Shown one piece after another: positions 18,935 through 37,878 of a stretch of 64,000 nucleotides of DNA. Position 1 is the stretch's first letter. Every line of letters starts with the position of its first letter. The notes beneath the pieces were generated by a model. The model was not told where the DNA came from. It was given only the letters and a program-made list of their open reading frames with translations, and ran no database searches. Source of the DNA: Clostridia bacterium (lineage in GTDB: Bacteria; Bacillota; Clostridia; Christensenellales; Aristaeellaceae); NCBI GenBank assembly GCA_017470145.1, contig JAFUFB010000006.1, forward strand, positions 42,120-106,119, read 5' to 3'. The position numbers and the translations under genes were made by a program.

Positions 18935-19900
18935 TCAGAACAGGCTGGAATCGGTGGTCTTGCTGCTGAGATAATTGGTAAACAGCAGGAAGGCCAGATT
19001 CACAATGGTATTGAACAGGCTCACCGCCGTGGACAGGGAATACTGTGGCTGGCCGGAGGTGGCGCCCAGGGAAATTCGATAGGTATAGGTGGAGAAGATA
19101 TCCGCCACCTCGTAGGTCGTGGGCTGATACAGGAGCAGCGTCTTTTCGTAGCCCACGTTCAGGATGGAGCCCATCCGCAGGATGAACAGGATCATAATGG
19201 TGGGCAGCAGGCCGGGCAGGGTAATATGGATCAGCTGCTGGAAGCGGTTGGCGCCGTCGATGCGGGCCGCTTCATACTGCTCCATGTCAATGCCGCTGAG
19301 GGCCGCCAGGTAGATGATGGAGTTCCAGCCAATGCCCTGCCAGATGTCGGAGATCACATAGATCAGCCGATAATATTTGGGATCCTGCAGCCAGTTTTGC
19401 TTCGTGCCCCCGAAGAAGGCCACGATGTCGGACACCAGGCCGTTCTGCTGGGTGTAAATCTTCACCAGGGAGCACAGCACCACCAGGGAGATGAAGTAGG
19501 GCATGTAGGTAATGGTCTGAACGGTGCGCTTGAATTTGTTGTGCCGAACCTCGTTCAGCATCAGCGCCAGCGCGATGGGCGCCGGAAAGCCGAAGAGGAT
19601 GGTCAGCCCGGAAATCAGGAAGGTGTTGCGCAACAGCCGCCAGAAATAGGGATCGTTGAAGAAGGTTTCGAACCAGTAAAAGCCAACCCATGGGCTGTTT
19701 TCGATGCCCCGGGTGATGCGATAATTCTTAAAGGCGATCTGGATGCCGTACATGGGCTTGTAGCAGAACAGCGCCAGATAGACCAGCACGGGCAGAATCA
19801 TCAGATACTTGTATTTGTTATGGCTGAAATCCCGGGTGATCTTCTTTCCCAGGGAGAGGCGCTTGTAGTGCGCGTTGATCGCCGCCTTCTCTTTGGCCAT
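18935..19900 (-). CDS. Carbohydrate ABC transporter permease (LplB/YteP type)
   Basis: Permease of 321 residues with six hydrophobic segments and the EAA loop YEAARIDGANRFQQLIHITLPG. The N-terminal KYKYLMILPVLVYLALFCYKP-like segment is typical of LplB; Bacillus YteP imports rhamnogalacturonan fragments with YtcP and YtcQ. I start at the ATG of MAKEKAA; a GTG ten codons upstream is possible. A 150-bp structured repeat and a large hairpin separate it from its binding-protein gene. Confidence 0.9.
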   Translation of the reverse strand: MAKEKAAINAHYKRLSLGKKITRDFSHNKYKYLMILPVLVYLALFCYKPMYGIQIAFKNYRITRGIENSPWVGFYWFETFFNDPYFWRLLRNTFLISGLTILFGFPAPIALALMLNEVRHNKFKRTVQTITYMPYFISLVVLCSLVKIYTQQNGLVSDIVAFFGGTKQNWLQDPKYYRLIYVISDIWQGIGWNSIIYLAALSGIDMEQYEAARIDGANRFQQLIHITLPGLLPTIMILFILRMGSILNVGYEKTLLLYQPTTYEVADIFSTYTYRISLGATSGQPQYSLSTAVSLFNTIVNLAFLLFTNYLSSKTTDSSLF

Positions 19901-19934
19901 GTCGTAAGCCCCCCTTTTCCTTTTTTCCACTCAA

Positions 19935-20086
19935 ATGCGAAGGGATGTTTCGATCCGGGGCCCTTGGAAGACGTCGGCACTTAGCGGGTGGCAAGCGCGC
20001 TGTCGCGCGAAGACAGCCGCTTTGTGCCGCTACGTCTGGAACGGAGGCGCGAGCCGTGCCCCGGAGTGGAACTCCCGCGCGCATGT
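19935..20086. repeat. Dispersed structured 150-bp element, copy A (152 bp)
   Basis: Outside an apical loop it is about 95% identical to 37001-37148. The element folds on itself from end to end: ATGCG/CGCAT, GGGA/TCCC, GTTTC/GGAAC, TCCGGGGC/GCCCCGGA, AGACGTCGGCAC/GTGCCG-ct-ACGTCT and AGCGG/CCGCT. The apex is CGCGC-TGTC-GCGCG here but GGG-CTCG-CCC in copy B, so sequence changed while pairing stayed. Lies inside the Lpl operon between permease and binding-protein genes, and is therefore transcribed. No protein is encoded. Confidence 0.9.
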
Positions 20087-20098
20087 TGCAAATAGAGA

Positions 20099-20142
20099 GG
20101 GAGCAGCGGCGGCCCGTTTCTCGCGGGCCCTCCGCTGCTCCC
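20099..20142 (-). terminator. Large stem-loop after the Lpl binding-protein gene
   Basis: GGGAGCAGCGG ... CCGCTGCTCCC stem with an inner GGCCCG/CGGGCC stem; followed directly by the palindrome CTGACCGGTCAG. On the minus strand no long T-run follows, so it probably limits read-through from binding protein into permeases. The rest of the 312-base gap is the 150-bp repeat. Confidence 0.7.
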
Positions 20143-20212
20143 TGACCGGTCAGGTCAGAGTCCTCTTTTCAGGAGGCATTCCGCCGACCCTTTTGTTTTT
20201 ATTCCCTGCCTC

Positions 20213-21841
20213 TTAGCGGGACAGATAACGATCGTAGCAGTTCTGGCGCAGCTCCAGCACGCGATCCACGTGATACTGGCTCAGGCCGCTGATGAAATCA
20301 TTCCAGGCAGCGTCGTCATTGACGTCCTTGTTGCCCACCAGGAAGGAGGTGCACTGTTCCACCACGTAGGTGCCCAGGTTGGCGTCGTACAGATCCAGCT
20401 CGTCGGATTCGGCGGTGGTGAAGGTCACGCCTGTGGGCCACTTGTGGCCGGAGGTCACTTCCAGCACCTTGTCCATCTGATCGGTATCCCGGCCCATGCC
20501 CAGATAGAACCAGGCGTCATCCGCGTCGATGGAGGCCTGACTGTTCTTCAGATACAGCAGGTTGGTGGCCTGGATGCAGCTGCCGCTCCAGGTGGTGCCG
20601 TTGTACTTCACCATGGGGTCGTTGGAGGTGTCGTTAGCCACCAGGTCGGTCCAGGCGGGCAGGCCCGTCTCTTCGCTCATGTACCAGGAATCGCCTTCGA
20701 TGCCGTAGTTCCAGAACAGGAAGCCTTCCGCGGAATAGGCATAGTCCAGGGCCCGCAGGCAGGTCTTCATGGTCTCTTCGTCCGCGGACTTGGTGATGAC
20801 GCCGGTGATGGAACCGATGCCGCTGCCGCCGAAGATGGAGTAGATGTTGCCTTCGTCATCCGTCGGATAGGGGATGCCGATCCAGGGGCGGCCGTTGCCG
20901 GCGGCTTCCATGTGGTTGTTCCACAGGTTCATCTGGCCCATGGAGGTCAGGGCGATGCCGCTCAGACCGGTTTCCACCTTCTGCTGCACGTTGGTGTCGT
21001 CCACGGTCAGCAGGTCGGTGTCCACCAGGCCTTCCTTATAGATACCGGAGAACCAGCGCAGCCAGTCGCGATACTCATCCGTGCTCTGGGCCAGGATGAC
21101 CTTGTTGTCGCGAATCTCGTACAGATAGCTGGCGTTCACGTTGCCATAAGCGCCGAAGGCGCCGGACAGACCCATCTGATAGAACCGGGGGCTGAAGGCG
21201 GAGGTGAAGGTGGCGCCGTTGTACTTCTCGTTGAACACGCGAATCACGTTTTCAAATTCTCTGATGGTCTTCGGAATTTCCAGGCCGCATTCCTCCAGCC
21301 AGTCCTGCCGAACCACGGGGCCCTGGTAGGAATCGTTCCAGCCGCCGTCTTCCCGGAAGAAGCCAAAGGCGTAATACTGGCCTTCGTCGGTCTTCATCGC
21401 CTTGTCATAGGCGGGGTTGGACTGCAGCCAGGCCCAGTAGGCAGGGGCATACTCTTCCAGATAGGGGGTCAGATCCCAGATCAGCCCATCGTCCAGATAC
21501 TGCTGGGCGTTGTTCATGAAATAGGCTTCCATGATGTTGGGCAGGTTATTGGGGTCGGCCAGCAGCGTGTTGGTGAACACTCCGCCGTCAGAACCGGTGG
21601 TGGGCAGAATCCATTCGATGTTGATGCCCAGCTGCTTGCTCAGGTTCAGATGGAAGGGAGATTCATGCCAATCGGAGTAGTCGGTGTGCACATTGTGGGA
21701 GTCCTGGGAATACCAGGTGATGGTCTTCGTGCCATCCAGGGGATAGATATCCGCCGTGGAAAGCAGGTTCGCCGCCGCGAAGGCGGAGGCTGCTGTCAGC
21801 ACCATGCACAGGGCCAACACCAGGGAAAGCAGTTTCTTCAT
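20213..21841 (-). CDS. Extracellular oligosaccharide-binding protein (LplA/YtcQ type)
   Basis: Solute-binding protein of 542 residues for the CUT1 importer. A signal peptide spans about residues 1-22 (KKLLSLVLALCM, then ASAFAA); the Cys in the core is not in a standard lipobox. Length above 500 and motifs such as WYSQDSHN, GGWNDSYQGPVVRQDWLEE and EYRDWLRWFSGIYKEGLVD match LplA-like proteins. Starts after AAAGGAGG. First gene of the minus-strand transcript with two permeases, GH88 and GH2; divergent AraC gene upstream. Ligand probably a pectin or hemicellulose oligosaccharide, by context. Confidence 0.92.
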   Translation of the reverse strand: MKKLLSLVLALCMVLTAASAFAAANLLSTADIYPLDGTKTITWYSQDSHNVHTDYSDWHESPFHLNLSKQLGINIEWILPTTGSDGGVFTNTLLADPNNLPNIMEAYFMNNAQQYLDDGLIWDLTPYLEEYAPAYWAWLQSNPAYDKAMKTDEGQYYAFGFFREDGGWNDSYQGPVVRQDWLEECGLEIPKTIREFENVIRVFNEKYNGATFTSAFSPRFYQMGLSGAFGAYGNVNASYLYEIRDNKVILAQSTDEYRDWLRWFSGIYKEGLVDTDLLTVDDTNVQQKVETGLSGIALTSMGQMNLWNNHMEAAGNGRPWIGIPYPTDDEGNIYSIFGGSGIGSITGVITKSADEETMKTCLRALDYAYSAEGFLFWNYGIEGDSWYMSEETGLPAWTDLVANDTSNDPMVKYNGTTWSGSCIQATNLLYLKNSQASIDADDAWFYLGMGRDTDQMDKVLEVTSGHKWPTGVTFTTAESDELDLYDANLGTYVVEQCTSFLVGNKDVNDDAAWNDFISGLSQYHVDRVLELRQNCYDRYLSR

Positions 21842-36159: not shown

Positions 36160-36897
36160 TTATAGCTCAAAGGTCACCTGCACGCACCGGGACAGGAAGC
36201 CCACCTCGCTGATGTCCGCGGTTTCCTGTTCATATTCCCGGTCATAGCTCTGCAGTAGGATCTGCCGATCGTTCAGGATCTTGATCTTCCGCAGGTAGCG
36301 ATGCTCGTTGTAATTGATCAGCATCACCGCCCCGTCCACCGGGCTGTTGGCCGGCACTGTCAGCACGATATCTCCCTTATGGATGCGGAAACCCCGCATG
36401 CTGTCGTCCGGAGCCAGGTAGTAGAACACCTTGTCCGGATTGGCCCCCTCGATGCGGCCGTTTTCCACCGGCACCAGCTTGTATCGCACGGGCTTCATGA
36501 CGGCGTTCATCACCGGCACCCGCTTCATCACGCTCTGCAGCGCGTCCAACCAGATGCTGCCAGCCACGCCCTCCTCCTTGTCCTCCTCCGTGGAGGCTAC
36601 CTTCTCCGCCTCCTTGACCCTGGGCTTGGGGGCAGCGGCTTTGGCGGCTAGGGCAGGCTGCACCTGGGCCAGATCCACCGTAGCGGCGATGTCGTCCAGG
36701 GTGAACTCCGCCTCATTCTGCTGCCGCAGGCCGATGGTCTTCAAAATCCGCCGAGCCTGGTCATCCCCGATGATCCGGGTTCCCGCCTCCACGGCCATGA
36801 TGTAGCTCTCGCTGACGCCGCATTTCCGGGCCACCTGCTTCGGGGTCATCTTCTGCCGAATCCGCTCCGTGCGGATTAAATCTCCTAATCTGCTCAC
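36160..36897 (-). CDS. XRE-family regulator with C-terminal S24/LexA-like domain
   Basis: 245 residues. The helix-turn-helix is at about 5-60 (LGDLIRTERIRQKMTPKQVARKCG, then VSESYIMAVEAGTR). A charged linker (about 85-125) leads to a C-terminal domain with APDDSMRGFRIHKGDIVL and YLRKIKIL, which fits the Ser-Lys layout of S24 peptidases as in CI and LexA repressors, so self-cleavage is possible. GTG start seven bases after GGAGG; an ATG 20 codons upstream would cross the terminator hairpin. No phage genes are nearby, so it looks like a housekeeping or stress regulator. Target unknown. Confidence 0.8.
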   Translation of the reverse strand: MSRLGDLIRTERIRQKMTPKQVARKCGVSESYIMAVEAGTRIIGDDQARRILKTIGLRQQNEAEFTLDDIAATVDLAQVQPALAAKAAAPKPRVKEAEKVASTEEDKEEGVAGSIWLDALQSVMKRVPVMNAVMKPVRYKLVPVENGRIEGANPDKVFYYLAPDDSMRGFRIHKGDIVLTVPANSPVDGAVMLINYNEHRYLRKIKILNDRQILLQSYDREYEQETADISEVGFLSRCVQVTFEL

Positions 36898-36923
36898 TTT
36901 TCTGCCTCCATCCGTTTCCTTGG

Positions 36924-36952
36924 AAAAAGCCGGAAACCACCCGGTTTCCGGC
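36924..36952 (-). terminator. Terminator of the liv operon / leader of the XRE gene
   Basis: GCCGGAAACC-GGGT-GGTTTCCGGC then TTTTT on the minus strand: a 10-bp perfect stem with T-run between the 150-bp repeat and the XRE gene. Confidence 0.85.
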
Positions 36953-37000
36953 CTCATTGTAATTGATTTTGACCCTGATTGTAAAGCAATATTTTACTGC

Positions 37001-37148
37001 ATGCGAAGGGATGTTTCACTCCGGGGCCCTTGGAAGACGTCGGCACTTAGCGGGTGGCGAGGGCTCGCCCGAAGGCAGCCGCTTTGTGCCGCTACGTCTG
37101 GAACGGAGGCGCGAGCCGTGCCCCGGAGGGGAACTCCCGCACGCATGT
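37001..37148. repeat. Dispersed structured 150-bp element, copy B (148 bp)
   Basis: Second copy of the element at 19935-20086, same orientation. Identical over long blocks (for example the 32 bases beginning CCCTTGGAAGACGTC). It differs by a 4-base shorter apical loop and a few changes, some of which keep base pairing. Lies ten bases after the livF stop and before the operon terminator, so it is in the liv transcript's 3' end. Confidence 0.9.
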
Positions 37149-37158
37149 AACACGGCGA

Positions 37159-37878
37159 TTATTTACTGGTCTTGCCCAGATAGGCCTCCTGAATGGCGGA
37201 GCTGGAGAGGAGCTCCTCCCCGGTGCCCGCCATGGTGATGCGCCCCGTCTCCAGCACATAGGCGTAATCGCAGGCGTGCAGGGCCGCGTTGGCGTTCTGC
37301 TCGATCAGCAGTACCGTCATCCCCGTTTCCTTCAGGGTCTGAATGATGCGGAAGATATCCTTCACCACCAGGGGCGCCAGGCCCAAGCTGGGCTCGTCCA
37401 TCATGATCATCTTGGGCCTGGTCATCATGGCCCGGCCCACCGCCAGCATCTGCTGCTCACCTCCGGACAGGGTGCCCGCCAGCTGCCAGGAGCGCTCCTT
37501 CAGCCGGGGGAACAGGTCGTAGATATATTCGATGTCCTGCTCAATGACTTCCTTATCCTTCCGCAGATAAGCGCCGATCCGCAGGTTTTCCAGCACCGTC
37601 AGGTTGGGGAACACCCGTCGCCCCTCCGGCACCATAGCGATGCCCGTTTCCACAATCTTCTGGGTGCCGTAATCCGTAATATCCCGGCCCTCGAAATAAA
37701 CCCGGCCCTCCTGGGCCCGAACCAGGCCGGAGATGGTCCGCAGGGTGGTGCTCTTGCCTGCGCCGTTGGCGCCGATGAGGGTCACAATCTGCCCCTGCTC
37801 CACCTCGAAGGAGATGCCCTTCAGGGCTTCGATGCCGCCATAGCTGACCACCAGATCCGTCACTTTCAGCAGGCTCAT
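37159..37878 (-). CDS. livF: Branched-chain amino acid ABC transporter ATPase LivF
   Basis: ATPase of 239 residues. Walker A GANGAGKST, the LivF segment VPEGRRVFPNLTVLENL, signature LSGGEQQMLAVGRAM, Walker B MIMMDEPSLGLAP and ending with the normal IQEAYLG. Last gene of livJ-H-M-G-F; overlaps livG by ATGA. Confidence 0.94.
   Translation of the reverse strand: MSLLKVTDLVVSYGGIEALKGISFEVEQGQIVTLIGANGAGKSTTLRTISGLVRAQEGRVYFEGRDITDYGTQKIVETGIAMVPEGRRVFPNLTVLENLRIGAYLRKDKEVIEQDIEYIYDLFPRLKERSWQLAGTLSGGEQQMLAVGRAMMTRPKMIMMDEPSLGLAPLVVKDIFRIIQTLKETGMTVLLIEQNANAALHACDYAYVLETGRITMAGTGEELLSSSAIQEAYLGKTSK

What the first reader, a model, noticed from the sequence alone, without database searches (positions are those of the whole stretch)
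19935..20086. A 150-bp dispersed element that folds end to end, with a changed but still paired apex
Two copies (19935-20086 and 37001-37148) are nearly identical, in the same orientation, in two unrelated transporter operons. Each folds as one long imperfect hairpin with six matching stem blocks. The apex differs (CGCGC-TGTC-GCGCG against GGG-CTCG-CCC, four bases shorter) yet still pairs, and the pair next to TCCGGGGC changes from a G.T wobble to C-G. That looks like selection on structure: a structured RNA, a MITE-like element, or a protein-binding palindrome. I know no named family that matches.
Basis: seen in the sequence. Interest (0 to 1): 0.8.

Follow-up and report, generated by a model that had tools for sequence, protein, structure and literature searches.

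The report
Mobile repeat with conserved folded core
The two copies belong to a previously unnamed family of short, apparently jumping DNA repeats, found in many Clostridia, whose centre keeps the same RNA-like fold although its letters change; what the fold does is not known.

Summary
In detail: two same-strand copies, 140 of 152 aligned columns identical, each one long hairpin. They belong to a dispersed family: 23 covariance-model matches in the window's own genome, matches in 29 of 45 genomes of its genus and in 81 of 200 of another family, f44; a class-wide sample of 391 rang only in the own genome and 8 genomes of f44. The core (long arm with a 2-nt bulge and a UU loop, three-way junction, GNRA-capped side hairpin) covaries on an alignment not fitted to structure: 26 of 40 pairs with changes on both sides, score 0.300 against 0.134 shuffled. 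No Rfam family matches. Some copies show transposition marks: 11-12 bp target duplications in 3 of 64 G425 copies, 8-bp ones in 4 of 30 genus relatives, and an empty site like an excision footprint; 22 own-genome copies, both window copies included, show no exact duplication. Best reading: a non-autonomous, MITE-like element carrying a core selected as a fold, probably RNA. Transposase and function are unknown. Unexplained: outer arms pair within a copy yet can differ wholly between related copies.

The parts
19935..20086 (+). element copy 1 (152 nt); + is the strand whose fold carries the GNRA loop
37001..37148 (+). element copy 2 (148 nt)
19962..20044 (+). copy 1 long arm P3: CC/GG, internal loop UUGGA/GGAAC, ACGU stem, 2-nt CU bulge at 20030-20031, UU at 19981-19982, variable apex
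   Evidence: fold, letters checked; covarying pairs; conserved bulge and loop
20046..20055 (+). copy 1 side hairpin P4, GGC-GCGA-GCC, GNRA loop at 20049-20052
   Evidence: fold, letters checked; 102 of 105 four-base loops are GNRA
37028..37106 (+). copy 2 long arm P3
   Evidence: fold
37108..37117 (+). copy 2 side hairpin P4, GGC-GCGA-GCC
   Evidence: fold, letters checked
19935..19961 (+). copy 1 outer arm (P1 and P2), 5' side
   Evidence: fold; alignment
20058..20084 (+). copy 1 outer arm (P2 and P1), 3' side
   Evidence: fold; alignment
18935..19930 (-). neighbour of copy 1: ABC permease
   Evidence: PF00528
20213..22090 (-). neighbour of copy 1: 625-aa ORF ending toward the element; solute-binding type guessed from position only (no Pfam match at E<=1e-5)
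37159..37878 (-). neighbour of copy 2: ABC ATPase whose stop codon lies 10 nt beyond the element's 3' end, on the other strand
36160..36957 (-). neighbour of copy 2: HTH plus S24-peptidase protein

Best explanation
The two copies are members of a family of short non-autonomous mobile elements (MITE-like, about 150-270 bp, imperfect palindromes, no shared ORF seen) of Clostridia. SHOWN: dispersal in many copies, presence and absence at orthologous sites, target duplications in some lineages, and a core conserved as a structure in two families of the class. INFERRED: a transposase supplied in trans moves them; different lineages carry different ends (duplications of 8 bp in genus relatives, 11-12 bp in G425), while the core is kept because its fold is needed, most likely as RNA in transcripts that cross the intergenic insertion sites: a three-way junction with a GNRA-capped side hairpin that may dock beside the junction and be bound by a protein. 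Which protein, and whether the fold serves the element (mobilisation, tolerance by the host) or the host (behaviour of UTRs), is not known; I lean to the element, because copy number is patchy and truncated copies are common.
For: Dispersal. Covariation on a sequence-only alignment with shuffle and slide controls and on 116 distinct CM-aligned rows (0.483 against 0.154, slid versions at most 0.082; that alignment leans to the structure). Unpaired positions conserved: GNRA in 102 of 105 four-base loops (4 rows have other lengths), bulge CU or UU in 102 of 109 rows, UU loop in 106 of 109. The + fold is more stable than its complement in 92 of 109 rows. Insertion marks: direct repeats of 12, 11 and 11 bp in L183, L189 and L114 of G425 at the same spacing (3 of 64 at >=10 bp against 0.00 expected from swapped flanks); 8-bp repeats at a constant offset in L034, L042, L094 and L097 (6 of 30 at >=8 bp against 1.28 expected, the other two at other spacings); L009 filled against L059 empty with a tandem 10-bp unit at the junction, and L007 against L052. 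In nine ortholog pairs of G086 and G241 the core keeps its pairs: of 23 changed core pairs 18 stay paired and 5 break.
Against: No partner transposase found: PF01609 gives 1 hit in G000, 2 in G425 and 0 in G043 (which has 29 copies), and the loci show no match to the element ends; other transposase families were not searched. No direct repeat of 8 bp or more at 22 own-genome, 25 G086/G241 or 16 other f44 copies; G043 1 of 17 (0.89 expected); CANRVK 6 of 22 (2.20 expected) but at mixed spacings. The filled flanks of L009 match the footprint unit only partly. G.U (139) hardly exceeds A.C (104) in paired columns, weaker than expected for a pure RNA constraint. One of five covariation measures, further pair types, was reached by 3 of 500 shuffles. 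At two orthologous low-copy loci the elements are only 70% and 76% identical although neighbouring proteins are mostly 70-97% identical, so copies can decay. No expression data were available.
Confidence: 0.58

Rival explanations
1. A DNA-level structure: the palindrome is recognised as a folded single strand or cruciform by a transposase or recombinase, and the core is its recognition surface; RNA plays no part.
For: G.U is not clearly favoured over A.C in paired columns (139 against 104); the whole element is palindromic; target duplications and an excision-like footprint in some copies.
Against: The third loop base is a purine in all 105 four-base loops and 102 are GNRA, and the + strand folds better in 92 of 109 rows, asymmetries natural for RNA. 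No hairpin-acting enzyme was found, but none was searched for.
Confidence: 0.2
2. A cis-acting or stand-alone regulatory RNA family of the host: copies at gene starts or ends control translation, termination or stability, and spread is secondary.
For: In G086/G241 the element's 3' side lies 21-84 nt from the start of a same-strand mechanical ORF in 12 of 25 cases, and nine copies are orthologous between the two species. Repeats of the B. cereus bcr series are reported as transcribed in UTRs (PMC3446304, passages).
Against: No conserved neighbourhood: among 20 loci, mostly from genomes with few copies, only two ortholog pairs share neighbours. Orientation relative to the downstream ORF is unbiased in G086/G241 (13 opposite, 12 same) and biased to opposite strand in G425 (42 to 18).
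Confidence: 0.13
3. Neutral palindromes: pairing is maintained by template switching between the two arms (quasipalindrome correction), not by selection.
For: Outer arms differ strongly between some related copies yet stay paired, also at an orthologous site where 97 nt around the core are identical (L116/L140).
Against: It would erase the bulge, UU loop and junction, which are conserved; in orthologs core pairs are kept and arm pairs are not (18 of 23 against 7 of 36 changed pairs; 19 of the 29 broken arm pairs come from L116/L140 and L145/L146). So it may explain the arms, not the core.
Confidence: 0.07

Closest known systems
bcr1 and bcr2/bcr3 repeats of the Bacillus cereus group
   Same: Short intergenic repeats, many copies, MITE-like, partly transcribed in UTRs (PMC3446304, passages); bcr1 is listed with a predicted common structure in PMC2267715 (passages).
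   Different: Specific to that species group by the title of its founding paper (seen in reference lists). No sequence comparison was made. Ours is one core in two families of Clostridia.
Other stem-loop repeat families listed in PMC2267715 (e.g. Efa-1, Clop-1, Clot-1)
   Same: Intergenic, multicopy, predicted to fold (passages).
   Different: Only table rows were seen; sequences not obtained, homology not tested.
MITEs in general
   Same: Short, inverted-repeat ends and target duplications in some lineages.
   Different: In MITEs as I recall them only the ends must be conserved; here the middle is the conserved part and the ends differ between lineages.
REP/REPIN elements with RAYT transposases
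   Same: Dispersed extragenic palindromes, non-autonomous.
   Different: REPs are 20-40 bp (title and start of abstract of PMC3733652, listing); ours is about 150 bp or more with a branched core.
IS110 bridge RNAs, omega RNAs and HEARO (recalled, no call)
   Same: Structured RNA tied to a mobile element.
   Different: No Rfam match; the associated proteins were not searched for.

Membership tests
MITE (non-autonomous DNA transposon) | short, multicopy, no coding capacity | tested here: met
   23 matches in G000, 66 in G425, mostly about 105-200 nt between model ends. Mechanical ORFs of 90 aa or more overlap 9 of 64 G425 and 1 of 25 G086/G241 copies; none is shared as far as seen. A version split by a long ORF would escape the model; of the partial copies only printed stretches were read
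MITE (non-autonomous DNA transposon) | inverted-repeat ends shared among copies | tested here: inconclusive
   seen in G425 (17 of 64 copies passed a search for GCGAAAC-like and GTTTCG-like ends) and, by eye, in about 12 of the 27 G000 copies printed (GTTTAGTCG-like); in G086/G241 arms of different copies show no likeness beyond chance level (0.42)
MITE (non-autonomous DNA transposon) | target-site duplication of fixed length | tested here: inconclusive
   11-12 bp in 3 of 64 G425 copies, 8 bp at constant offset in 4 of 30 genus relatives, none of 8 bp or more in 22 G000 and 25 G086/G241 copies
MITE (non-autonomous DNA transposon) | ends match an autonomous transposon in the genome | tested here: inconclusive
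   only PF01609 tried: 3 loci in 3 genomes, no matching ends; other transposase families not searched
a known RNA family (Rfam 15) | covariance model match | tested here: not met
   window at gathering score; 19800-20250 at E<=10; 8 loci of relatives at E<=1: only weak matches, mostly microRNA families, below the families' gathering scores
REP/REPIN | 20-40 bp palindrome | tested here: not met
   element length 148-152 in the window
bcr1 | sequence or structure homology | not tested
   bcr1 sequence not obtained; its founding paper is not held
intrinsic terminator | U tract after the stem on the transcribed strand | not tested
   looked at by eye at a few copies only

The most novel reading that the evidence does not exclude
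The folded core is the true mobile unit: it moves (as RNA or as a hairpin) and its outer arms are written anew as inverted copies at each move or rearrangement, so each copy gets its own private palindrome. This would be a transposition or repair mode not described, to my knowledge, and would explain nearly identical cores with different but well-paired arms, even at one orthologous site (L116/L140).
Probability: 0.12. Interest if true: 0.85.

Novelty: new variant of a known kind. Interest (0 to 1): 0.62.

Why it matters
A structured core kept by selection inside mobile repeats of two families of Clostridia is a ready-made set of natural variants for asking what the fold does. If it is RNA-level, it would join a small set of mobile elements tied to a structured RNA; if DNA-level, it is a new hairpin substrate. 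It also warns that paired changes in long palindromes need not mean selection: in orthologs the arms lose pairs while the core keeps them.

Tried and rejected
Known RNA family: rejected. Phage, plasmid or viral carriage: blastn found 0 matches in phages and plasmids, and three exact-pattern scans of IMG/VR found 0; exact patterns would miss diverged copies. Pre-existing palindrome as target: not supported at L059, where the empty site has no arms. L143/G241 and L134/G241 as clean empty sites: first read so, then dropped, because by eye the G282 site resembles the 5' part of the L143 insert, so G241 may have a deletion. L006 against G059: no clean site. SINE-like source gene: no conserved neighbourhood beyond two ortholog pairs among 20 loci. 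PF01609 partner: no matching ends at the three loci found. Strand by wobble counts: undecided. My first impression that the L116/L140 arms show compensation was not borne out: 1 compensated and 11 broken of 22 arm pairs, although each copy's arms pair on their own. Papers: 8 searches listed no paper that, by title and abstract start, describes this family; of these papers only passages of three were seen. PMC8040213 (passages) reports 3161 candidate RNAs, 250 of them palindromic, and could contain it; its supplements could not be looked up here.

Full report
OBSERVATION. The two stretches are real, on the same strand and identical in 140 of 152 columns, and each folds into one long branched hairpin that none of 200 shuffles matched. 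The window has no third copy at E<=10.

FAMILY. blastn with copy 1 finds 44 pieces in the own genome, a draft of 2.45 Mb in 30 contigs, 83.7% complete; 20 span nearly the whole query. A covariance model R1 (121 positions; rough E-values) was built from 24 copies; 28 had been listed and L001, L074, L016 and one copy with a nested insert were left out. With it: 29 of 45 genomes of the genus have matches, 23 in G000 and 29 in G043; 9 of 391 genomes across the class, namely the own genome and 8 of one other family f44; 81 of 200 genomes of f44, 65 of 165 among good ones, some listings capped. Searched singly with wider scoring: G425 66, G086 14, G173 14, G241 12. G043 is very probably the named MAG RGIG4401 (a contig of the same length) and G463 the MAG CANRVK, titled uncultured Eubacteriaceae (same contig numbers and places); that f44 is Lachnospiraceae is only my guess from its number of genera. 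One exact hit lies in a Succinivibrionaceae MAG, which I take for a binning error.

STRUCTURE. On the sequence-only alignment A2 the structure I named (taken from the fold of copy 2) has 82.5% of cells paired, 26 of 40 pairs with changes on both sides and a covariation score of 0.300; 500 shuffles give 0.134 with none reaching it, slid versions reach at most 0.142; the count of further pair types was reached by 3 of 500 shuffles. On A3 (124 matches from 94 of the 142 loci then held, 116 distinct; fitted to the model, so leaning) the score is 0.483 against 0.154. Over 109 distinct long rows: four-base P4 loops are GNRA in 102 of 105 (4 rows have other lengths), the bulge is CU or UU in 102 of 109, the 5' small loop is UU in 106 of 109, and the + strand folds better in 92 of 109. 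Wobble counts do not settle the strand: G.U 139, A.C 104. Rfam: nothing.

MOBILITY. In G425, 17 of 64 extracted copies (66 matched) passed a search for GCGAAAC-like and GTTTCG-like ends; the best preserved, L114, L183 and L189, begin TAGGCG and carry direct repeats of 11, 12 and 11 bp at the same spacing; the twelfth base of L183 may belong to the element. Swapped flanks give 0.00 expected at >=10 bp, and 5 observed against 1.44 at >=8 bp. Among 30 other copies of genus relatives 6 have repeats of 8 bp or more (1.28 expected); four, L034, L042, L094 and L097, are 8 bp at a constant offset, the other two, L035 and L095, are not. CANRVK: 6 of 22 (2.20 expected), mixed spacings. None at >=8 bp in G000 (22), G086/G241 (25 of 26 matches extracted) or other f44 copies (16); G043 1 of 17 with 0.89 expected. 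The best own-genome site is L009: G043 lacks the 167-nt insert and carries a tandem 10-bp unit there, which looks like both duplications left after excision; the filled flanks match that unit only partly. L007 against L052 is a second presence/absence pair, less clean. Remnants: 5' halves and core-less arm hairpins in G000, 3' halves in G425.

ARMS AGAINST CORE. Arms pair within a copy better than between copies: 0.77 against 0.53 in G425, 0.78 against 0.42 in G086/G241, 0.70 against 0.52 in CANRVK, 0.62 against 0.52 in G000/JAFUDS loci. In G425, 72 of 538 pairs with cores at least 85% identical have arms under 60% identical although both copies' own arms pair well; the other three sets have 0 of 9, 1 of 97 and 0 of 245. 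In nine ortholog pairs of G086 and G241, of 36 changed arm pairs 7 stay paired and 29 break (19 of the 29 at two loci), of 23 changed core pairs 18 stay and 5 break. At L116/L140 a run of 97 nt around the core is identical and the downstream flank is 96% identical, yet the arms differ and each copy's arms pair. So selection on the fold is supported for the core; the arms need another explanation.

CONTEXT. In G425 the ORF on the element's 3' side is on the opposite strand in 42 cases and the same strand in 18; for 32 of the 42 its end lies 12-60 nt from the model edge (mechanical ORFs). In G086/G241 it is 13 to 12. In the window copy 2 ends 10 nt before the stop of an ABC ATPase on the other strand. 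Some loci hold two copies back to back (L132, L137, L139).

VERDICT. A MITE-like family with a conserved folded core, not in Rfam and not described in any paper listed by eight searches of an open-access library; a new variant of a known kind. The mover and the function of the core are open. The nearest analogue by description is bcr1, not tested for homology.

Noticed in passing
L075, L078, L026 (and a variant in L018): A second palindromic repeat (containing CCAGTGGACTGTTTTC or its variant) is nested in outer arms or at the side-hairpin position of some copies.
   Followed up: partly
L021, L030, L048 near 5323, L061, L067, L252: In several copies the side-hairpin position holds one and the same larger palindromic domain of roughly 120 nt.
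   Followed up: no
L252, downstream of the remnant: Sequence that looks like the start of a group II intron (recalled resemblance, no call).
   Followed up: no
window 20094-20145: A separate strong GC-rich hairpin between copy 1 and the neighbouring ORF end; its start is also seen beside the ortholog L077. Terminator-like by eye.
   Followed up: no
L014 (G000 contig C9) and L015 (contig C2): The same copy and flanks appear on two contigs, so the draft genome has duplicated or mixed sequence.
   Followed up: no
L116/L140, L134: In G086/G241 some copies sit beside genes that look like sugar-nucleotide synthesis genes (by eye, not searched), with upstream DNA that differs between species at L116/L140.
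   Followed up: partly
L174 (G425 contig C84): Partial 3' halves of two element types follow a complete copy.
   Followed up: no
L035: A 14-bp direct repeat flanks this copy at 66-68 nt; by eye both copies lie in terminator-like hairpins.
   Followed up: no
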